Source: Candidatus Eiseniibacteriota bacterium (GTDB lineage: Bacteria; Orphanbacterota; Orphanbacteria; Orphanbacterales; Orphanbacteraceae). Taken from it: a stretch of DNA of 45,746 bases. Of this stretch, positions 14,317 through 27,407 are shown in pieces. The notes under the pieces are model-generated. The model was not told the origin of the DNA. It did not search any database and saw nothing but the letters and a program-made list of their open reading frames with translations. The stretch is taken from positions 1 through 45,746 of the forward strand of contig JAJRWB010000049.1 of assembly GCA_024276995.1 (NCBI GenBank). Direction: 5' to 3'. How positions within the stretch are numbered: the first letter of the stretch is position 1; each line of letters begins with the position of its first letter. The translations under genes were made by a program, and so were the position numbers.

Positions 14317-16023
14317 ATGAAGAAGAATCGTGCGAGCCGGACGGGAAAGGGTGGGGCCCAGACCGCTCTGTTCGAAGAAGCGCCGGCGGAGAATACGAAA
14401 AAGGAAAAGAAAACGACGGTCCGGGCGGCGACCGCCGCCAACCTTCGTGTGACGAAAAAGAAAAGACCGGCGAAAGTGGCGAAACTCCGCGGCACCGCGA
14501 AGCAGCGGGAGATCTCGGTGAGCGAGTTCTTCTCGAAGAACCGCCATCTCCTCGGCTTCGATAACCCTTCGAAGGCGCTGCTCACCACGGTGAAGGAGGC
14601 GGTGGACAACTCTCTCGACGCGTGTGAAGAGGCGGGAATCCTCCCGGTGATCCATGTGCTGATCGAGCCGCTCGCCGACGATCGTTTCCGGGTCACCGTG
14701 AAGGACAACGGTCCGGGCATCGACAGGAAGGAAGTGCCCCGCGTCTTCGGTTCGCTCCTCTACGGGAGCAAGTTCCACCGTCTTCGCCAGTCGCGCGGCC
14801 AGCAGGGGATCGGCATCTCCGCCGCCGGCATGTACGGCCAGCTCACCACGGGAAAACCGGTGATCGTTGTCTCCCGCTGCGGATCGAAGAAGCCGGCTCA
14901 GCGCTTCTCCATCCTCCTCGATACGAGAACGAACCTCCCGGTGATCACGGCGAACGACGAAGTCGAATGGGATCAACCCCACGGCACGTCGATCGAGATC
15001 GAGCTCGAGGCGAGCTACAAGGGAGGGCGGCACTCGGTGGACGGCTATCTCTGGCAGGTCGCCCTCGCCAACCCCCACGTCGAGTTGCACTACCGCCCTC
15101 CGAAGGGCGATCCCGTCGATATCGAACGGGCGACGAAGGAGATGCCCGTCGAAGCGCGCGAGATCAAGCCCCACCCGCGGGGCGTCGAGCTGGGGCAGCT
15201 GATGAAGATGCTGAAGGAGACGAAGGCGCGGAACCTGAGCGGTTTCCTCACACGCGATTTCAGCCGCGTCAGCTCCCGGGTGGCGGCGGAGATCCTCGAG
15301 GGGGCGAAGCTGAAGCCGACGATGAGCCCGACACGCGCCCATAGGGACGCCGCGGAAGTGCTCTACCGGGCGATCCAGCGGACGAAGATCATGAATCCGC
15401 CGACGAACTGCCTCTCTCCGATCGGCGACGCACACCTGGCGAAATCGCTCGAAAGCCGGCATGAACCGGCGTTCGTCTGCGCCGTGTCTCGGCCGCCGGC
15501 GGTGTACAGGGGAAACCCCTTTCTCATCGAGGCGGCGCTCGCCTACGGCGGACCATCTTTCGAGGCGGACGCCCCGGCGCGCCTCTACCGCCTCGCGAAC
15601 CGCGTCCCACTCCAATATCAAAAGTCGGCGTGCGCCATCACGAAGAGCGTGATCGACGTGGCGTGGAAGGGATACGGCGTTCACCAGAGCCGCGGCGCCC
15701 TCCCGGCCGCGCCGATGGCGATCCTGGTGCACATCGCATCCGTCTGGGTTCCCTTCACATCCGAATCGAAAGAGGCGATCGCGTCGTATCCCGAAATCAC
15801 CAAGGAGATCCGACTCGCCATACAGGAGTGCGGACGCAAGCTCGGCGCACATATTAGACGGCGGCGACGACTGGCGGACGCGGAGAAGAAGAAGAGCTAC
15901 ATCGAAAAGTACATCCCCCACATCGGCCTCGCGCTTCAGGAGATCCTCGGGCTCACCGACAAGAAGCGGGCGACGACCGAGAGCCGGCTGAGGGAGATTC
16001 TCGAGAAGAGCCGCAAGATGTAA
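14317..16023 (+). CDS. top6B: DNA topoisomerase VI subunit B
   Basis: A 568-residue ATPase subunit of type IIB topoisomerase. A basic, low-complexity N-terminal extension of about 60 residues is followed by ISVSEFFSKNRHLLGFDN and the GHKL ATPase: N box TVKEAVDNSLDACEEAGI, G1 VKDNGPGID, and the ATP lid SRGQQGIGISAAGMYGQLT. The transducer domain with a lysine-rich stretch (GKPVIVVS onward; LVHIASVWVPFTSESKEAI late) completes it. ATP binding closes the B-subunit gate so that subunit A can pass one duplex through another. Most bacteria lack this enzyme; it is typical of archaea and plants, with scattered bacterial cases. It is followed by subunit A after 39 bp. ATG start with GGGGG ten bases upstream; ends in TAA. 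Confidence 0.95.
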   Translation: MKKNRASRTGKGGAQTALFEEAPAENTKKEKKTTVRAATAANLRVTKKKRPAKVAKLRGTAKQREISVSEFFSKNRHLLGFDNPSKALLTTVKEAVDNSLDACEEAGILPVIHVLIEPLADDRFRVTVKDNGPGIDRKEVPRVFGSLLYGSKFHRLRQSRGQQGIGISAAGMYGQLTTGKPVIVVSRCGSKKPAQRFSILLDTRTNLPVITANDEVEWDQPHGTSIEIELEASYKGGRHSVDGYLWQVALANPHVELHYRPPKGDPVDIERATKEMPVEAREIKPHPRGVELGQLMKMLKETKARNLSGFLTRDFSRVSSRVAAEILEGAKLKPTMSPTRAHRDAAEVLYRAIQRTKIMNPPTNCLSPIGDAHLAKSLESRHEPAFVCAVSRPPAVYRGNPFLIEAALAYGGPSFEADAPARLYRLANRVPLQYQKSACAITKSVIDVAWKGYGVHQSRGALPAAPMAILVHIASVWVPFTSESKEAIASYPEITKEIRLAIQECGRKLGAHIRRRRRLADAEKKKSYIEKYIPHIGLALQEILGLTDKKRATTESRLREILEKSRKM

Positions 16024-16062
16024 TCGCGTCCGGCACCGGCCGGACGACGGGAGAAAGCGGAA

Positions 16063-17172
16063 TTGGCGACCAGGCGAAAGACGAAGAACGACGGTGACAT
16101 CCTCGGCCGGATCCGCGCCGAGGCGGGTAACGTCGACGTGAAGATCAACAAGGGCGTGAAGCCGTCGATGAAGTTTCCCGTCCGTTCTCTCCAGAACGTG
16201 GCGTACCAGCCGAAGAAGGGCTACTTCGAGATCAAAGGGAGGATGAAGGAGCGGACCCTCACGGTGAACACGGTGAAAACCTTCGCCCAGACCCTCCGAA
16301 TGATGTCGTTCTCCAAGGAACTGGTGGAAACCGACGACATCGCCACGAAAAGAGAAGCGTATTACGTTTCGAAGAACTGGGCGGAGGCGCGGTTCGCCGA
16401 GCAGCCCGAATCGGATACGGTGATGGAGGATGTGGAGGCGCTCTTCGGGGTGAACCGTGAACAGCTCGGTTTCATACCGGAGGAGAAGGGGGGCGACGTG
16501 GCGGGGAAGCTCGTCGTGATCGACGTCGATCCCTCCACGGGGAAGGAGCTTCGCATCGATTGCACGAAGTTCGGCTCCGGCGCCTACTCGATTCCCATCT
16601 CGGTGGAACAGCTCAAGTTCGAAACGGAGGCGAAGTTCATTCTCGTCATCGAAACGGCGGGCATGTTCCAGCGTCTCGTCAAGCACAGCTACTGGAAGAA
16701 GGCGAACTGTATCCTCGTTTCGATGGGGGGCGTTCCCACCCGGGCGTGCCGGCGTTTCATCCGCCGTCTCGCCGATATCAAGAAGATCCCCGTGTACGTC
16801 TTCGTCGACGGCGACCCGTACGGTTTCATGAACATCTACCGCACCCTCAAGGTCGGTTCGGGGAACGCGGCGCATCTGAACGAATACTTCTGCGTTCCCC
16901 AGGCGCGCTTTCTCGGGATCACGCCGCAGGACATCACCGACTACGAACTGCCCACCCATCCGCTCAAAGAGGTCGATATCAAGCGGGCGAAGGACGCGCT
17001 GAAGAACGATCCTTTCGTGCTCCACCACAAGCCGTGGCAGCGGGCGCTCAAACAGATGGTGAAGATGGGGGTTCGCGCGGAGCAGCAGGCGCTCGCCAAG
17101 CACGGCCTCAACTACGTGATCGACGAGTATCTCCCGCGGAAGATCGCAAAGGCCGCGCAGTTCCTTCCCTGA
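16063..17172 (+). CDS. top6A: DNA topoisomerase VI subunit A (Spo11-like)
   Basis: A 369-residue DNA-cleaving subunit. The winged-helix domain carries the tyrosine pair Tyr100-Tyr101 in TKREAYYVSKNW, one of which forms the covalent bond with DNA. The Toprim domain has the conserved Glu in FILVIETAGMFQRL and the DxD in VFVDGDPYGFMNIYRTLK, which bind magnesium. Length and motifs match archaeal Top6A and eukaryotic Spo11. It starts at TTG 16063, 39 bp after subunit B, preceded by GGGAGAAAG, so both subunits come from one transcript. With subunit B it forms an A2B2 enzyme that relaxes and decatenates DNA. Confidence 0.95.
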   Translation: MATRRKTKNDGDILGRIRAEAGNVDVKINKGVKPSMKFPVRSLQNVAYQPKKGYFEIKGRMKERTLTVNTVKTFAQTLRMMSFSKELVETDDIATKREAYYVSKNWAEARFAEQPESDTVMEDVEALFGVNREQLGFIPEEKGGDVAGKLVVIDVDPSTGKELRIDCTKFGSGAYSIPISVEQLKFETEAKFILVIETAGMFQRLVKHSYWKKANCILVSMGGVPTRACRRFIRRLADIKKIPVYVFVDGDPYGFMNIYRTLKVGSGNAAHLNEYFCVPQARFLGITPQDITDYELPTHPLKEVDIKRAKDALKNDPFVLHHKPWQRALKQMVKMGVRAEQQALAKHGLNYVIDEYLPRKIAKAAQFLP

Positions 17173-18980: not shown

Positions 18981-19823
18981 CTACGGTTCCTCTCTTGGAG
19001 CGAGAAGCAACAGGGGGTCGACGGCGAAGCCGTCCTGACGGATCTCGAAGTGAAGATGAGGGGCGCTCGACAACCCCGTGCTCCCTAGGAACGAGATCGT
19101 GTCGCCGCGCTTCACCTTGTCTCCGGTGGCGACCACCAGCTTCGCGTTGTGACAGTACACCGTCACCAATCCGCCGCCGTGATCGATCACCGCGACGTTG
19201 CCGTACTTCCTGTCCCATCCCGCGCTGATAACGGTACCCGAAAGAGGCGTTTCGATCAGCGTATTTCGCGCCGCGGCGATGTCGATCCCCGAGTGGATCC
19301 CCTCTCCCTCTCTCACGTCGCCGAACGAGGAGGAGACGAACCCCTTCACCGGCCATCGTAGACGACCGAGACGGGGCGCGAGGATCTTCTCGATGCGCGC
19401 CGCATCCGCCCCGCCCGGCATGGCCGCCTCCTCGAGTTCCACGTCGGGCATCCCGGGAGGCCTCGTGTCGACCGGCGCACCGGGAGACCGCGTCGCCGAG
19501 GCGGACCCGGTGAGCACCGGCTCGGGGAGACCGACGAGCTTCCGGATCTTCCGATCCATTTCGCGAAGGCCTTCCACCTCCTCCCGGAGCGCGTCGTACT
19601 CCGCCTGCTTCTCGGTCAGTTCGCTGAGACGGATCTGCAACTCCGTCCAGTTGCGCACCTTCCACATCAGCTCGCCGTAGGTGACCAGGAGGAACACCAC
19701 GGCGATTCCCGTGACGAACAGAGCCGCGCCGATCATGTAGAGCGTCCCGAGAGAGAGACGCAGGTGATACGTCTTCCTCCCGTCGGAAGGAGTCACGATG
19801 ACGGAATAACTCTTCGCCGGCAT
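18981..19823 (-). CDS. M23 (LytM) family membrane-anchored peptidoglycan peptidase
   Basis: A 280-residue protein with one membrane helix (LGTLYMIGAALFVTGIAVVF, residues about 25-48), a coiled coil (ELQIRLSELTEKQAEYDAL, to about residue 90), a low-complexity linker, and a LytM domain with zinc ligands in HSGIDIAA and HLHFEI, plus GNVAVIDHGGGLVTVYCH. The fold cuts peptide cross-links in peptidoglycan in the periplasm. Gene pairing with a bactofilin is known to matter for cell shape (for example CcmA with Csd1 in Helicobacter), so a cell-shape role is likely. ATG start; ends in TAG. Confidence 0.92.
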   Translation of the reverse strand: MPAKSYSVIVTPSDGRKTYHLRLSLGTLYMIGAALFVTGIAVVFLLVTYGELMWKVRNWTELQIRLSELTEKQAEYDALREEVEGLREMDRKIRKLVGLPEPVLTGSASATRSPGAPVDTRPPGMPDVELEEAAMPGGADAARIEKILAPRLGRLRWPVKGFVSSSFGDVREGEGIHSGIDIAAARNTLIETPLSGTVISAGWDRKYGNVAVIDHGGGLVTVYCHNAKLVVATGDKVKRGDTISFLGSTGLSSAPHLHFEIRQDGFAVDPLLLLAPREEP

Positions 19824-20765
19824 ACTCTGGAAGCTCCCGGTCGATGCTGCGAGGGGCGGGTCGGTTATTCATGTCATGAAGAGGGAGGAAAGTCAACGAC
19901 AATGGCGGGCGGTGGGGAGAACAGACAGAAGGGCGGGGGTCTTCCGGACGGTCATCGGAAAAGGGTGCTACCGTTTGCGATTGAGTTTCCCATCATCCTG
20001 ACCGTTTCAACCCCCGCCTTCCATCCGTGTTTTCCGAGGTGGAACCTCCTTGTTCGTACGCCGTTCTCGCGGCGGTCCCCATTCAAGGCACAGGGAACGG
20101 AAGCTCCCACACATCCCGCTCCGCGCGCCCCCGTCGAAGCTTGGAGGGCAATGCCGTTGCCGCTTCGACCTGGCGTTCGTGAGAACACCTCTTCCTGCTC
20201 TCAAGGAACGTGCCAATTTTGCGCGGATTCATCTTCTTGGGCTGTCCGGCCTTAACAGAAACAATATCAACAGATTCCAGAATCCATGCGGCGACAGGCC
20301 CTCCACGGCCGGCCGGGAATGTGTACAAAAACGAGGACGGTTTCTGTCCCGTGGGGTAGCCGGGTCGTTTCCGGCGAGGACCGATTCCGAACGGAAGTGG
20401 GTGAATATTGAACCCTTTGGTGCACCCGATCGGATCGATTTCGAGATCCGATGCAACCCGGCGGCGGGTCGCGGTGTATAACTTGCAGGCCGGTGTGGAG
20501 TTGAAACCGTCCGCCCCGATTATCCCGTCGATGGTACGTCGTTTGCTCAGGGAGTACGGCGGGGAAGGGGGCTGGAAGCGGTTTCGATCGTCAAGGCTCG
20601 TGCGGATCACTTGGGGAAGCGTGCACGAGGTCGACTTTCCGGATAATGGAAACGAGCACTCCTTATCCTGGTTGGAAAGTGACCCCCCTCCCCGTTTTTC
20701 GAAAAGGGTGCAACTTTCGAGTGAATTATGTAAGTTGAAGTTAAGAAACAACTGAATAACAGATT

Positions 20766-20877
20766 GGGCCGGAAGAGTCCTCCACATTCCCAATTCTTCG
20801 GGAAATTCGGCAATTATCGGGAGAGGGCGATTCGTCGTTTTCTCCTCCTTCACTATCTCCAATAGCTCTTCCGGCCC
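20766..20877. repeat. 12-bp perfect inverted repeat enclosing 88 bp
   Basis: GGGCCGGAAGAG at 20766-20777 is exactly complementary to CTCTTCCGGCCC at 20866-20877. The enclosed 88 bp contain shorter self-complementary pieces (TTCCC with GGGAA around 20787-20804). Directly after the right arm on the plus strand is GTTTTTATG, a short T run. The whole could fold as a branched RNA closed by a 12-bp stem, or mark the ends of a small element. No target duplication is visible. Confidence 0.5.
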
Positions 20878-21110
20878 GTTTTTATGCCCTGGAAAGAAGA
20901 CCGGATCAAGGATCTCCCCCGCTATTCTTTCTTGCCTCACCCAGATGATTCTGACATCATGGATGCCTCCGAAACGATGAAACTTTGCCGATCCGGTGCG
21001 TGACGCCGTTTCACCTCTCGTCGAGGCCAGCCCGGGCATGCCGGCGGCGGGCCGCCGCCCGACGGCCGGCCACCACGGCCGCGCGGCTGCCTTCCGCCCC
21101 TTCCTTTCCG

Positions 21111-21139
21111 TGGGCAACTGCAAAACCGCGACATATATT
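21111..21139 (+). promoter_or_regulatory. promoter of the caspase-like protein gene
   Basis: TGGGCA (21111-21116, four of six to consensus) and TATATT (21134-21139, five of six) with a 17-bp spacer. The expected transcript start near 21146 gives a 30-nt leader containing the GGAGG at 21165-21169. Confidence 0.5.
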
Positions 21140-21175
21140 GAGAGTGCCTGGGGACGCACGACGTGGAGGATGCGG

Positions 21176-23200
21176 ATGGCACTATCGAAAACTCTCGATC
21201 GCCGGACGGGAAGCGACGACGTCGCCGCGCGCGCCGGGCCGGGCGCCGGGCTGCGCGTTCGCCCGGGCGTTCGCACCGCCGGGGCGCTCGCTGTCGCCGC
21301 GCTGCTGGTCGTTCCCGCGCCGGCGGCCGCCTCGCTGCAGGCGGTTCTGGTCTCGGGATTCACCGACGCCGGTTTCCGGGCCGACCTCTCCCACATGTAC
21401 ATCACGCTCCTCGAGAGCGGCTACCAGGAGGAGAACATCCTCGTCTGCTACAACCTGGGACAGTCGCTCGACCTGAACGGCGACAGGATCAACGACGTCG
21501 ATTTCCCCTGCCGGGACTCGGCCGACGTGGCCGCCGCCTTCGACACGGTGGCGGCGCGCGTCACGGGGGGGGACGTCATCGTCTTCTTCGCCACCGGTCA
21601 CGGCGGCTCGACGGTCCGCGCGGGAAACGGCTACCCGAACAGCGGAATTTTCACGGAGAGCTGGGCGGATACGGTCTGGGATATCGAGGTGACGGGTTAT
21701 TTCAAGGATATCGATGCCGCCGCGGGAAGCCCGACGCGAAAGATCTGCCTCGTCGTGACGTGCCGGTCGGGGGGATTCATCACGAAGTTCGACGGGAAGG
21801 GGGACGATCTCGACGACCTGAAGAACATATCGGTCGCCACGTCGGTGAGATACGATCAGCGTGCCACCTACTACGCCGACGGCTACCCGATGACCCAGTG
21901 GTGGACCTCGGCGCTGAGAGGGCAGGATTGGGACGGGAACCCGGTCGACGCCGATCGCAACAACGACGGGTCGGTCAGTCTCCGTGAAGCGTTCCGCTAC
22001 GCGGGAAGCCGGTCGAAAGAGAGCGACAAGACGCCCCAGTACTTCGCCGACGGATGTCTCCTCGATCATTTCACCGCCCTGAACGGCGGCCAGCTCCCCG
22101 TCCCCGTGGTGACGATCAACATGACGTGCTGCCCCCCGGAGCCGCCCTACCCGTGGGACCCGGTCGGCTGCGGCGGCCTCGGCATCAATGTCAACGCGAA
22201 CCTGGGCAAGACGGGCACGATCGAGATGATCGCCCGGCTCGCCAACGGCGGGACGGCCCCCTCGCCCGCCGGGCAGCTCCACTATTTCTACCGTGATCCG
22301 ACACTCTGTCTCGGCTTCCACGACACCGGCTGGCAATCGGCCGGCACGGAGCCGATTCCGCCTCTCCTCCCCGGCGACACCCTCGACATGCCGCCCGTTG
22401 CATTCGCCCCGCCGCCAGCCAACTCTTTCGGCGAAACGAACTGGACACTGGCCGCCCGGGTCGACGACCCGGCGAATCCCCCCGGGTCGGGGTGGCTCGA
22501 CGACGACTTCCAAGTGAAGATGGTGAACCGGTGGACGATCGACGGGGCTCCGGGCGAGATTCACGAGACACATCTTTACGCGGTGAACCCGGAACCGGAG
22601 AGCGCGGCGGTGGTTCTCGCCGTCGACGCGACGCTCTATCCGGCCGAATGGAACGTGCAGATCGTCCCCGCTCCGGGCGACACGCTCCTTTTCGGGCCGG
22701 GTGAGGAGAGAGTGGTTACCGTCACGATGGAGGCGGTGGGGACGGCCCACACGATCGGAACGGCCGGCATCGTCGAATACCTTCTCCCGAAGGATAACAA
22801 CGGCTCGTGCGAAGAGAGCGGCTGCGTCGACACGACGTGCGGAGGCTATGTCCGGATGGTGGGAGGCGCGACGATCTCATTGGTCACGGGACCGACCGCC
22901 GTCGAGAGAGCGGAAAGCGCCCCGCCCGCCGCACGACTCGCCGTGCTCCCTTCGGTGTTCACCGGCGAAACCCGGATCACCTTCTACCTGGTGGAGCGAT
23001 CGGCGGTGAACGTGACGGTTTACAACGCCGCAGGGAGGCGGGTCCGAACGGTCGCGAATGCCGTTTTCGACCCGGGAGAGCATGCGGTTTCATGGAACGG
23101 TCTCGACGACCGCGGCAAGATCGCCGGCCCGGCGGTCTATTTCGTGCGGGCCGTGACGAACCGATCCGCCCGGGTCCGAAGAGTGATCAGACTGGAGTGA
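21176..23200 (+). CDS. secreted caspase-like (C13/C14-type) peptidase with C-terminal sorting-type domain
   Basis: A 674-residue exported protein. ATG 21176 is chosen because GGAGG ends six bases before it. An N-terminal signal segment (TAGALAVAALLVVPAPAAA, residues 34-52) leads into a caspase-hemoglobinase fold: catalytic His142 in ATGHGGS and Cys196 in VVTCRSGGF. Two calcium-loop-like sequences follow (LNGDRINDVDF; DRNNDGSVSLREAF, EF-hand/dockerin type). The middle is beta-rich with many cysteines (MTCCPPEPPYP, CEESGCVDTTC). The last 80 residues form a FlgD-like Ig domain (ITFYLVERSAVNVTVYN, WNGLDDRGKIAGPAVYFVRA) of the type that acts as a sorting signal in FCB-group bacteria. Secretion and proteolysis are inferred from these motifs; the substrate is unknown. 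Confidence 0.85.
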   Translation: MALSKTLDRRTGSDDVAARAGPGAGLRVRPGVRTAGALAVAALLVVPAPAAASLQAVLVSGFTDAGFRADLSHMYITLLESGYQEENILVCYNLGQSLDLNGDRINDVDFPCRDSADVAAAFDTVAARVTGGDVIVFFATGHGGSTVRAGNGYPNSGIFTESWADTVWDIEVTGYFKDIDAAAGSPTRKICLVVTCRSGGFITKFDGKGDDLDDLKNISVATSVRYDQRATYYADGYPMTQWWTSALRGQDWDGNPVDADRNNDGSVSLREAFRYAGSRSKESDKTPQYFADGCLLDHFTALNGGQLPVPVVTINMTCCPPEPPYPWDPVGCGGLGINVNANLGKTGTIEMIARLANGGTAPSPAGQLHYFYRDPTLCLGFHDTGWQSAGTEPIPPLLPGDTLDMPPVAFAPPPANSFGETNWTLAARVDDPANPPGSGWLDDDFQVKMVNRWTIDGAPGEIHETHLYAVNPEPESAAVVLAVDATLYPAEWNVQIVPAPGDTLLFGPGEERVVTVTMEAVGTAHTIGTAGIVEYLLPKDNNGSCEESGCVDTTCGGYVRMVGGATISLVTGPTAVERAESAPPAARLAVLPSVFTGETRITFYLVERSAVNVTVYNAAGRRVRTVANAVFDPGEHAVSWNGLDDRGKIAGPAVYFVRAVTNRSARVRRVIRLE

Positions 23201-24737: not shown

Positions 24738-24773
24738 GCTCACGGCGGTGTGAGCGCGGCCGATCAGTATAAT
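24738..24773 (+). promoter_or_regulatory. operator-like palindrome and -10 element before the hybrid histidine kinase
   Basis: GCTCAC (24738-24743) and GTGAGC (24750-24755) form an 18-bp dyad with a 6-bp centre, overlapping a second hairpin of CACCGC (24734-24739) with GCGGTG (24745-24750). A consensus TATAAT lies at 24768-24773 and the dyad covers where its -35 should be; no -35 consensus is present. This is the layout of an activator or repressor site. Confidence 0.4.
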
Positions 24774-24851
24774 AATGCCGATACGTGCCTTGTGGAATTA
24801 TTCCGTTCACGCTGGATACCCCCCTTCCGCCGCGAACGACCGAGGACCGCA

Positions 24852-27407
24852 TTGTCCGACACGTCTCATACCGCCGCGGATCGTCCCTTCTCCGACAAGC
24901 GCCGTCCGGGAGTCCGCTGGTACAGGAGTCTCCGGTTCGCCTCGGTGATGCTCTTCGTCTTTCTCGCCTCGGTCCTCTTCGGCGCGGTGTTCCTCGTCAT
25001 GGAGACCGCCGGGCGCGACGAGATCACGCGGCTGAAACAGAAGGAGATCGACCTTCGCGGCAGGATGGTCATGGGGAACCTCGGCCAGACGATTTCCACC
25101 GTCGAGACGATCGCCCGTTCCCTCGCGAAGCTCGGCGCCACGCTGCCACACCACGATGCGCTCTTCCTCGAGACGGTGCCCGCGATCCTGGGCGACAACG
25201 ATCCGGCATCGATGGTGGCGGGCGGCGGCATTTGGCCCGAGCCTGGGAGGTTCACGCCGGGGATTGAACGGCGGAGTTTCTTCTGGGGACGCGATGCGGG
25301 CGGCGCGCTCCGCTACTACGACGACTACAACGCTCCCGGCGCCCCCCCCTACTACGGCGAGGAGTGGTACGTTCCCGCGAAGCTGATCGGCCCGGGTGAG
25401 ACGTACTGGTCGAGATCGTACATCGACCCGTACTCCCTCGAGCCGATGTCGACGTGCACCGTTCCGTATTTCGTGAACGGCGAACTCGCCGGTGTGGCCA
25501 CGGTGGACGTGAAGCTCTCCGGCCTCGCCTCGTTCCTTCGTCGCGAGTCGGAGAAGTACGAAGGTTATATCTTCGCCGTCGACAGGGCGAACCGCTTCCT
25601 CGCCTACCCGAGGGACGAAGACGCCAGAGTCGTTTCCACGGATGCGAAGGGTGAGCGGGTCGTCCGATACAGGACGCTGGCGGAACTCGCCGCGAAGGAT
25701 CCCGCGATGACCGCCATCGCCGGTCCCCTCGGGACGATGAGCCGCGAAAGAGTCGCATGGGTGAGGAACACGGACCCGGACGGCCTGGCGCGTCTTGCGG
25801 CGCGGGTCATCTCGGAGAGCCACAACATCGGCGACGTCGAGGCGGAGCTGATCGCAGCCGGGCTGATACGGGACCGGCTCTTGGTATCCGGCGACGAGGC
25901 GAGCTTCCGAATCGAGAACGATGGGCTTCTGGGTGAAGCGGCGCAGGTGACGGCATTCCAGATTCCGGGCGTTCACTGGACCGTCGGGGTGGTCGCTCCG
26001 CAAAGCCACGTCCAGGCGACAGTCGATTCGATCAGCAGGCGGCTGATCCTGCTGCTCATTCTCCCGGTGGCCGCCACACTTCTCACCGGCTTCTGGTTCG
26101 TCCAGATCCGCTTCACCGGCCCGGTGAGCCGCATGACGGAGAGGATCAAGGAACAGTTCCGCCGCCACGACGGCGGGCTCGAGCCCCTTCCCAACACGCG
26201 CCGAGACGAACTGGGCGAGCTGACACATTGGTTCAATAGGAGGACGGAAGCGCTCTGTTCCGCCACGGAAGCGGCGGAGAAGGCGGCGAAGGCAAAATCG
26301 CTCTTCCTCGCCAACATGAGCCACGAAATCCGCACGCCGATGAACGGCATTCTCGGAGCGTCGTACCTCCTCCAGGGAAACGGCGAGGCGGAGGAACAGC
26401 AGAACATCGGGATCATCCAGAACTCCGCCGAATCGCTGCTCGCCATTCTGAACGACATCCTCGATTACTCGAAGCTCGAGGCGGGGAAGTTCACCATCGA
26501 GAAGACTCCTTTCGACCTTAACGAACTGGTAACCAACTCCCACGCCCTACTGAAAGAACCGGCAGCGGCGAAGGGAATCGATTTTCCCTGCACGGTGCGC
26601 GTCGAGGGCGCCTCCTGGTTCCTCGGTGATTCGGGCCGGATCCGGCAGGTGCTTCTCAATCTCCTCTCCAACGCGATCAAGTTCACGAACAGGGGATCGG
26701 TATCGCTCACCGTTCTCGGCAGGCGCCTCGGCGACGGCGGGTGGCGCCTCGATTTCGAAGTGCGCGACACCGGGATCGGCATTCCGGAAGACGCCCGGGA
26801 GACGATCTTCGAGATGTTCCAACAGGTGGACGGCACCTCCACGCGGACCACCGGGGGAACGGGTCTCGGCCTTTCGATCAGCAGGCGCCTTTGCGAGCTG
26901 ATGGGGGGATCGCTCACCGTGGAAAGCCGCGTGGGCGAGGGATCGGTTTTCCGCGCCTCGATTCCGCTCATCGAGACGGAAGCGCGCCGGCGGAAACGGA
27001 AGGGAGAAGACCCCGCCGACACGCCTCTCGGACTGAAGGTTCTCGTCGCCGAGGACAACGTGACGAACCGGCTCGTGGCGGAACGCTTCCTCGAGAGGCT
27101 CGGCTGCACCGTGATGTGCGCCGAAGACGGCGTCGTGGCGGTGGAACTCTCCGCGACCGAACCATTCGACCTGATCCTGATGGACATGCAGATGCCGAAT
27201 CTCGGCGGCGTCGACGCGACGATCGCGATCCGGGAGGGGCCGGGGCCGAACCGGTCGACGCCTGTGGTGGCGCTCACGGCGAACGCCCTCGAGACCGATC
27301 GGAAACGGTGCATGGAGGCGGGGATGGACGGCTTCCTGACGAAACCGTTCAAGATCGAAGCACTCCGGAAGGAACTGGTCTATCGGACGGCGGCGCTCAC
27401 CGGCTGA
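24852..27407 (+). CDS. membrane hybrid sensor histidine kinase (dCache-HAMP-HisKA-HATPase-REC)
   Basis: About 851 residues. A first membrane helix (ASVMLFVFLASVLFGAVFLV, residues about 30-52) and a second (LILLLILPVAATLLTGFWFV, about 395-420) enclose a periplasmic dCache-like sensor of about 340 residues (EEWYVPAKLIGPGETYWS, YIDPYS). A HAMP-like linker leads to HisKA (NMSHEIRTPMNGILGA), HATPase (NLLSNAIKFTNRG, DTGIGIPED, GGTGLGLSISRR) and a C-terminal receiver with Asp in LMDMQMP and Lys in FLTKPFK. It senses a small molecule outside and phosphorylates its own receiver. TTG 24852 with CGAGGA before it is my choice; GTG 24792 or 24750 are alternatives. No partner regulator is adjacent. Confidence 0.88.
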   Translation: MSDTSHTAADRPFSDKRRPGVRWYRSLRFASVMLFVFLASVLFGAVFLVMETAGRDEITRLKQKEIDLRGRMVMGNLGQTISTVETIARSLAKLGATLPHHDALFLETVPAILGDNDPASMVAGGGIWPEPGRFTPGIERRSFFWGRDAGGALRYYDDYNAPGAPPYYGEEWYVPAKLIGPGETYWSRSYIDPYSLEPMSTCTVPYFVNGELAGVATVDVKLSGLASFLRRESEKYEGYIFAVDRANRFLAYPRDEDARVVSTDAKGERVVRYRTLAELAAKDPAMTAIAGPLGTMSRERVAWVRNTDPDGLARLAARVISESHNIGDVEAELIAAGLIRDRLLVSGDEASFRIENDGLLGEAAQVTAFQIPGVHWTVGVVAPQSHVQATVDSISRRLILLLILPVAATLLTGFWFVQIRFTGPVSRMTERIKEQFRRHDGGLEPLPNTRRDELGELTHWFNRRTEALCSATEAAEKAAKAKSLFLANMSHEIRTPMNGILGASYLLQGNGEAEEQQNIGIIQNSAESLLAILNDILDYSKLEAGKFTIEKTPFDLNELVTNSHALLKEPAAAKGIDFPCTVRVEGASWFLGDSGRIRQVLLNLLSNAIKFTNRGSVSLTVLGRRLGDGGWRLDFEVRDTGIGIPEDARETIFEMFQQVDGTSTRTTGGTGLGLSISRRLCELMGGSLTVESRVGEGSVFRASIPLIETEARRRKRKGEDPADTPLGLKVLVAEDNVTNRLVAERFLERLGCTVMCAEDGVVAVELSATEPFDLILMDMQMPNLGGVDATIAIREGPGPNRSTPVVALTANALETDRKRCMEAGMDGFLTKPFKIEALRKELVYRTAALTG

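What the first reader, a model, noticed from the sequence alone, without database searches (positions are those of the whole stretch)
20766..20877. Candidate structured RNA or small element bounded by a 12-bp inverted repeat
Perfect 12-bp arms enclose 88 bp with smaller internal pairings, and a T run follows the right arm on the plus strand. It lies in gene-poor DNA between two well-defined genes, which is where an uncharacterised RNA or a MITE-like element would sit.
Basis: partly seen in the sequence, partly recalled or inferred. Interest (0 to 1): 0.5.

Follow-up and report, generated by a model that had tools for sequence, protein, structure and literature searches.

The report
Family-specific bacterial small RNA gene
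The inverted repeat is the base of a small folded RNA of about 120 letters that the seven available genomes of one little-known bacterial family keep in the same place, so it is very probably a real regulatory RNA gene missing from the standard RNA catalogue, although what it regulates is not known.

Summary
Comparison decides the case. All 7 held genomes of the window's family (5 genera) carry one copy; 379 other genomes show none. Copies are 65-95% identical. The 13-bp closing stem pairs in 7 of 7 and an inner hairpin covaries; the covariation score beats 500 of 500 shuffles. A T-rich tail follows on the plus strand. No common reading frame fits and Rfam has no match. It is a new family of small noncoding RNA, not a MITE. 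Likeliest mechanism, inferred only: an Hfq-independent antisense RNA whose unpaired CCUCC/CUCC segments mask ribosome-binding sites of other mRNAs. The same intergenic region holds sigma54-like promoter sites: toward M23-peptidase/bactofilin in 7 of 7 genomes, toward the RNA in 4 of 7 (one weaker), where a second probable structured RNA begins.

The parts
20766..20778 (+). 5' arm of closing stem P1 (13 bp)
   Evidence: 13 pairs, standard pairs in 7 of 7 copies; 7 pairs never vary, 4 vary on one side, 2 have a change on both sides
20779..20785 (+). unpaired CCUCCAC, identical in 7 of 7; proposed anti-Shine-Dalgarno pairing segment
   Evidence: mean unpaired probability 0.71-0.98
20788..20803 (+). 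short hairpin P2, UCCC/GGGA (20788-20791 with 20800-20803)
   Evidence: 4 pairs in 7 of 7, almost invariant, so no covariation evidence; the predicted outer pair 20787-20804 fails in 5 of 7
20806..20814 (+). invariant segment UUCGGCAAU after P2, mostly unpaired
   Evidence: identical in 7 of 7; its two Gs are often predicted paired
20819..20846 (+). covarying hairpin P3 (20819-20830 with 20835-20846)
   Evidence: 12 pairs, 94% of cells paired, 4 pairs with a change on both sides; innermost pair 20830-20835 fails in 4 of 7
20847..20862 (+). pyrimidine-rich 3' segment with CUCC, partly unpaired; second proposed pairing segment
20865..20877 (+). 3' arm of closing stem P1
20879..20883 (+). T run, likely 3' end of the RNA
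   Evidence: 5-8 T in the 10 bases after the stem in 7 of 7 copies
20532..20546 (+). sigma54-like -24/-12 site facing the RNA (TGGTACGTCGTTTGC, 10 of 11)
   Evidence: 10 of 11 also in G001 and G005, 9 of 11 in G004, at 220-249 nt before the RNA; best 7 of 11 within 400 nt in G002, G003, G006
20558..20701 (+). second probable structured RNA: closing stem with three arms, then T run
   Evidence: same architecture in the 4 genomes that have it; motif in 4 of 386 genomes
20201..20215 (-). sigma54-like site facing the M23 peptidase gene (TGGCACGTTCCTTGA, 10 of 11)
   Evidence: 10 of 11 in 7 of 7 genomes
19964..19991 (.). block conserved in 7 of 7 inside the presumed M23 leader

Best explanation
The feature is a small noncoding RNA gene on the plus strand, about 20766 to 20885, found so far in one bacterial family. 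Its ends pair into a 13-bp stem; inside sit an almost invariant short hairpin, a covarying hairpin and two unpaired pyrimidine-rich segments (CCUCCAC and UCCUUC..CUCC); it ends in a T-rich tail. SHOWN by computation: conservation, pairing with covariation, one copy per genome, lack of a common reading frame, absence from Rfam. INFERRED: it is transcribed as its own unit and acts in trans as an antisense RNA; the stable closed stem protects it without Hfq, and the exposed CCUCC/CUCC segments pair with purine-rich ribosome-binding sites of target mRNAs, mostly repressing them. My odds: real structured RNA 0.93; trans-acting antisense RNA of this kind, given that it is real, about 0.4. Targets are unknown.
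For: 7 of 7 family genomes hold it, 65-95% identical. Structure count on A3: 95.2% of 210 cells paired; 6 pairs and 8 cells with changes on both sides (3 and 1 of 500 shuffles reach this); covariation score 0.283 against 0.208, reached by 0 of 500 shuffles; sliding partners by 1-3 columns lowers every measure. Consensus fold -49.3 kcal/mol on the plus strand against -36.6 on the minus strand, and several kept pairs are G-U as read on the plus strand. T-rich tail on the plus strand in 7 of 7. The element and the block at 19949-19998 are the best-conserved parts of an otherwise diverged intergenic region of about 0.9 kb. CCUCCAC is identical in 7 of 7 and mostly unpaired. Hfq not found in 7 of 7 while the control search works. 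The gene downstream differs among genomes, so a cis role for a downstream gene is unlikely.
Against: No transcript evidence. Only 7 genomes, so covariation is modest; the measure 'further pair types' is reached by 35 of 500 shuffles. P2 has no covariation, and 5 of 7 break its outer predicted pair. Single-sequence folds are about equally stable on both strands, and in 4 of 7 copies the base composition beyond the other end of the stem is also T-rich read on the minus strand (4-6 of 10). No consistent complementarity of the CCUCCAC segment to the start regions of the M23 or bactofilin genes (some start codons there are uncertain). Ribosome-binding-site-like purines precede only 6 of 14 window genes checked, and the usual 16S 3' end was not found in this assembly, so the anti-Shine-Dalgarno idea is weakly anchored. 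The 88-nt interior is far longer than in an ordinary intrinsic terminator, so the T-tail may not mark the end. No conserved -35/-10 promoter directly before it was identified (alignment; scan).
Confidence: 0.5

Rival explanations
1. A structured RNA that works by binding a protein or as a scaffold, not by antisense pairing: the almost invariant P2 plus UUCGGCAAU would be the protein site, and the closing stem would bring the ends together as in 6S or Y RNAs.
For: The P2 loop region and UUCGGCAAU are the most conserved letters; one copy per genome in 7 of 7; paired ends.
Against: It is not 6S or SRP RNA: the Rfam search of the element found nothing up to E 10; 6S-model matches lie elsewhere in 7 of 7 genomes, 3 above the cut-off and the one of G004 weak (E 0.13); SRP RNA lies elsewhere in 6 of 7. 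No TROVE (Ro) protein in 7 of 7, so a Y RNA is unlikely.
Confidence: 0.35
2. A cis-acting DNA or RNA signal of the locus (terminator or 3' processing element) with no function of its own in trans.
For: G+C-rich stem followed by a T-run on the plus strand in 7 of 7; plus-strand sigma54-like sites and a second RNA lie upstream in 4 of 7.
Against: 88 nt between arms with invariant unpaired letters is more than a terminator needs; the terminator scan did not pick it; in 3 of 7 genomes neither the upstream RNA motif nor a plus-strand sigma54-like site was found, yet the element is kept.
Confidence: 0.12
3. A MITE or other mobile element bounded by terminal inverted repeats.
For: Perfect 12-bp terminal repeats.
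Against: One copy in the genome by BLAST and by covariance model; same neighbours on one side in 7 of 7; interior conserved and covarying.
Confidence: 0.01
4. A short conserved protein-coding gene on either strand.
For: A long minus-strand ORF (20083-21405, 440 aa) runs through the element in the window.
Against: Element lengths of 109-115 nt differ by non-multiples of three; each of the six frames counted from the ends has a stop in at least one genome; similarity of the open frames occurs on both strands and in several frames at once.
Confidence: 0.02

Closest known systems
PmaR of Agrobacterium tumefaciens (PMC6234868; passages seen)
   Different: No sequence relation tested or claimed. PmaR mostly activates, and the paper says its interacting sequence is not an anti-Shine-Dalgarno region; here the loop also holds two hairpins and CCUCC/CUCC motifs.
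NfeR1 and AbcR1/2 of Sinorhizobium meliloti (PMC8844928; passages seen)
   Same: Similar length (NfeR1 115 nt) and exposed anti-Shine-Dalgarno motifs (AbcR CUCCUCCC) that repress translation by pairing at ribosome-binding sites.
   Different: The rhizobial RNAs are multi-hairpin molecules (AbcR: stem loops with motifs in a loop and between hairpins); here the motifs lie inside a closed terminal stem, and Hfq was not found in 7 of 7 genomes.
RoxS/FsrA C-rich-region sRNAs of Bacillus subtilis (PMC8216469; passages seen)
   Same: C-rich single-stranded regions bind mRNAs at or near ribosome-binding sites; a G-rich sponge RNA (RosA) can bind them.
   Different: Different folds and hosts; no sequence match in Rfam.
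6S RNA (RF00013)
   Same: Terminal closing stem and inner hairpin; one copy per genome.
   Different: About 120 nt against 187 model positions; no match to the model, and 6S-model matches lie elsewhere in the same genomes.

Membership tests
Structured small noncoding RNA (general kind) | pairing conserved by compensatory change | tested here: met
   6 pairs with changes on both sides; covariation score reached by 0 of 500 shuffles; modest sample of 7
Structured small noncoding RNA (general kind) | no protein-coding frame | tested here: met
Structured small noncoding RNA (general kind) | transcribed as a discrete RNA | not testable with these tools
   no transcriptome held
Anti-Shine-Dalgarno / C-rich antisense sRNAs | conserved unpaired C-rich motif complementary to ribosome-binding sites | tested here: met
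   CCUCCAC identical in 7 of 7 and mostly unpaired; ribosome-binding-site-like purines before only 6 of 14 window genes
Anti-Shine-Dalgarno / C-rich antisense sRNAs | mRNA targets bound at the start region | tested here: inconclusive
   only the two neighbouring genes tried; no consistent pairing over 7 genomes; no genome-wide search possible
Rfam families (all 4227) | covariance-model match | tested here: not met
   no match at gathering score nor up to E 10
6S RNA | RF00013 match at this place | tested here: not met
Bacterial SRP RNA | RF00169 match at this place | tested here: not met
Bacterial Y RNA | Ro/TROVE partner protein in the genome | tested here: not met
   0 of 7
MITE | several copies in the genome | tested here: not met
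   one copy
Intrinsic terminator | short loop (a few bases) on a G+C-rich stem, then T run | tested here: not met
   stem and T run present, but 88 nt between the arms; scan did not list it
Riboswitch or cis leader | same downstream gene on the same strand in relatives | tested here: not met
   no window plus-strand gene downstream of the element has a same-strand match in the relatives' loci; identified downstream genes face the element; in G005 the downstream gene was not identified and in G002 the contig ends

The most novel reading that the evidence does not exclude
The intergenic region is a two-RNA regulatory centre of one bacterial lineage: divergent sigma54-type promoters read toward the cell-shape genes (M23 peptidase and bactofilin) on one side and toward one or two new structured RNAs on the other, so that RpoN sets wall remodelling and an antisense RNA programme together, without Hfq.
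Probability: 0.15. Interest if true: 0.6.

Novelty: new member of a known kind. Interest (0 to 1): 0.42.

Why it matters
It adds a new RNA family, restricted as far as searched to one uncultivated bacterial family, with sequence, structure and a covariance model; such lineages have little RNA annotation. If the antisense reading holds, it is an Hfq-independent regulator that can be tested by moving a defined 120-nt RNA into a laboratory host. Beside it, conserved sigma54-like sites in front of M23 peptidase/bactofilin genes suggest RpoN control of cell-shape genes, which is also testable.

Tried and rejected
MITE/mobile element: rejected on copy number and fixed neighbours. 6S, SRP and Y RNA: not supported. 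Coding: rejected. Direct action on the neighbouring M23 or bactofilin mRNA: no consistent pairing; two single cases were low against shuffles (G004 M23 5 of 200, G003 M23 10 of 200), and the bactofilin start that I supplied for G003 and G006 was not a start codon. Wider relatives: pattern scan of named genomes gave 43 stretches; 4 equal family contigs in length; the other 39, plus one viral stretch, were searched with the covariance model and 0 of 40 matched. In that search the only further matches were weak opposite-strand shadows of known copies (25.4, 20.6 and 17.7 bits). The 386-genome search used stricter filters that lose weak matches. Rfam on the conserved block 19823-20400 gave only a chance-level microRNA match, E 1.4. 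Consensus folding of that block gave no clear structure (-19.1 and -17.3 kcal/mol on the two strands of an alignment of about 300 columns). Automatic alignment of the second RNA was poor, so its consensus energy is weak (-20.4 kcal/mol); the case for it rests on the single folds and their shared shape (z -1.8 to -4.1; the shape arises in 6-8% of shuffles of each). Anti-Shine-Dalgarno anchor: 16S 3' end pattern, 0 matches in this assembly, inconclusive. Paper searches listed no paper whose title or abstract start named this RNA or locus; that is a limited library and few terms, so it is not proof that nothing is in print.

Full report
Observation. The repeat is real: arms 20766-20777 and 20866-20877 are perfectly complementary, 88 nt apart, with TTTTT at 20879-20883. 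By itself it means little: the window has 3 perfect repeats with arms of at least 12 and spacer 20-150; 30 shuffles have 1.4 on average and up to 4. The plus strand of 20766-20877 folds at -47.1 kcal/mol, z -5.0, 0 of 200 shuffles as stable; the minus strand also folds well, z -4.4.

Distribution. BLAST finds one copy in the window's own genome. Of 60 genomes in the relatives search, 7 match: the own genome and all 6 others of its family. A covariance model built from the 7 copies finds the same 7 of 386 genomes, with filters that may lose weak matches. The relatives list goes directly from 'same family' to 'same domain', so no held genome lies at an intermediate rank. A pattern scan of named genomes gave 43 stretches; 4 equal family contigs in length (JAJCZU01 Candidatus Eisenbacteria OFTM309 = G001, JALGYY01 LQ108M_Bin_12 = G004, JABDJQ01 and JAGUYC01, both labelled Gemmatimonadetes = G005 and G006). 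The other 39, and the one viral stretch, gave 0 of 40 model matches.

Structure. The copies are 65-95% identical. On alignment A3 the structure P1 (13 bp), P2 (5), P3 (12) has 95.2% of 210 cells paired; 6 pairs have changes on both sides (3 of 500 shuffles reach this), 8 such cells (1 of 500), covariation score 0.283 (0 of 500), further pair types 20 (35 of 500). Sliding the partners lowers every measure. P1 pairs in 7 of 7. P3 pairs in 94% of cells and carries 4 of the 6 two-sided changes. P2 hardly varies, and its outer pair fails in 5 of 7. RNAalifold on its own alignment proposed nearly the same structure with 25 pairs, 4 with two-sided changes. Strand: on my alignment the consensus fold is -49.3 kcal/mol on the plus strand and -36.6 on the minus strand, while single folds are about equal. 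T counts in the 10 bases beyond the stem are 5-8 on the plus strand in 7 of 7, but also 4-6 on the minus strand in 4 of 7. Taken together the plus strand is favoured.

Not coding, not a known RNA. Lengths between the outer ends of the arms are 109-115 nt, and each of the six end-anchored frames has a stop in at least one genome. Rfam has no match at gathering score over the window nor up to E 10 in 20680-20920. 6S-model matches lie elsewhere in 7 of 7 genomes (3 above the cut-off; G004 weak, E 0.13), SRP RNA elsewhere in 6 of 7 (none in the 82% complete G005).

Context. In all 7 genomes the bactofilin and M23 peptidase genes lie on one side, reading away from the element, whose start is 870-992 nt from the M23 start I used (the start codon is uncertain in G001 and G004). 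On the other side the neighbours differ: amidohydrolase in G004, and in the window beyond an ORF that has no match in the relatives' loci; IspF in G003 and G006; a class I tRNA synthetase in G001. These genes face the element. G005 was not identified, and in G002 the contig ends soon after. So no downstream gene explains it as a leader.

Intergenic region. Besides the element, the best-conserved block is 19949-19998, with smaller ones near 20099-20123, 20199-20223 and 20324-20348. Scoring a recalled sigma54 consensus (TGGCACGNNNNTTGC, 11 letters) over 253,604 strand-bases of the window and six relatives' loci gave 10 sites with at least 10 matches. All 10 fall in this intergenic region: 7 toward M23, one per genome, and 3 toward the element, in the window, G001 and G005, with a 9-of-11 site at the same place in G004. 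G002, G003 and G006 have no better than 7 of 11 within 400 nt. RpoN is present in 7 of 7, Hfq in 0 of 7. From about 12 nt after the plus site, 20558-20701 and its three counterparts fold into a closing stem with three arms from diverged arm sequences; z is -1.8 to -4.1, and the shape alone arises in 6-8% of shuffles. Its two conserved loop motifs occur together in exactly those 4 of 386 genomes; the reversed control pattern matched once, in G034. I call this second RNA probable, not shown.

Mechanism. The letters most constrained outside helices are CCUCCAC (20779-20785), the P2 loop and UUCGGCAAU (20806-20814), followed by a 3' pyrimidine-rich segment with CUCC. CCUCC/CUCC is what anti-Shine-Dalgarno sRNAs expose: AbcR1/2 carry CUCCUCCC and NfeR1 (115 nt) three such motifs (PMC8844928, passages). 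PmaR is a spoon-like RNA with a C-rich loop acting on cell-wall genes (PMC6234868, passages), and RoxS and FsrA bind with C-rich regions (PMC8216469, passages). By analogy I infer trans-acting antisense regulation without Hfq. Against it: no target is shown, the neighbouring genes do not pair consistently, ribosome-binding-site-like purines precede only 6 of 14 genes checked, and the 16S 3' end was not found in this assembly. A protein-binding or scaffold RNA is nearly as likely.

Verdict. A real, conserved, structured small RNA gene (0.93), a new family of a known kind, with an inferred mechanism. The repeat that drew attention is its closing stem.

Noticed in passing
window 20201-20215 (minus) and 20532-20546 (plus): Divergent sigma54-like promoter sites: minus site in 7 of 7 genomes toward M23 peptidase/bactofilin, plus site in 3 of 7 at 10 of 11 and a fourth at 9 of 11. 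RpoN present in 7 of 7.
   Followed up: partly
window 20558-20701 (plus): Second probable structured RNA (closing stem, three arms, T run) just after the plus sigma54-like site, in 4 of 7 genomes.
   Followed up: partly
window 19949-20010: About 30 nearly invariant bases (GGGTGCTACC.TTTGCGATTGAGTT.CCC) in 7 of 7 genomes, inside the presumed M23 leader if read on the minus strand; one copy in the own genome; no Rfam match of note; function unknown.
   Followed up: partly
window 20321-20338: Short conserved block GTGTACAAAAACGAGGAC about 110 bp upstream of the minus sigma54-like site, where an activator could bind (inference).
   Followed up: no
window 14317-17172: Topoisomerase VI B and A subunits encoded side by side in a bacterium (Pfam), matched in 3 of 6 relatives' loci (G001, G002, G004).
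   Followed up: no
window 20996-23200 and 24750-27407: An ORF with a FlgD Ig-like domain and a hybrid histidine kinase interposed around the amidohydrolase gene; neither ORF itself has a match in the relatives' loci held.
   Followed up: no
L022 (G004:C2:776712-776888): 6S RNA of this family scores low on the Rfam model (4 of 7 below the cut-off, G004 only 20.1 bits), so it may be a diverged variant.
   Followed up: no
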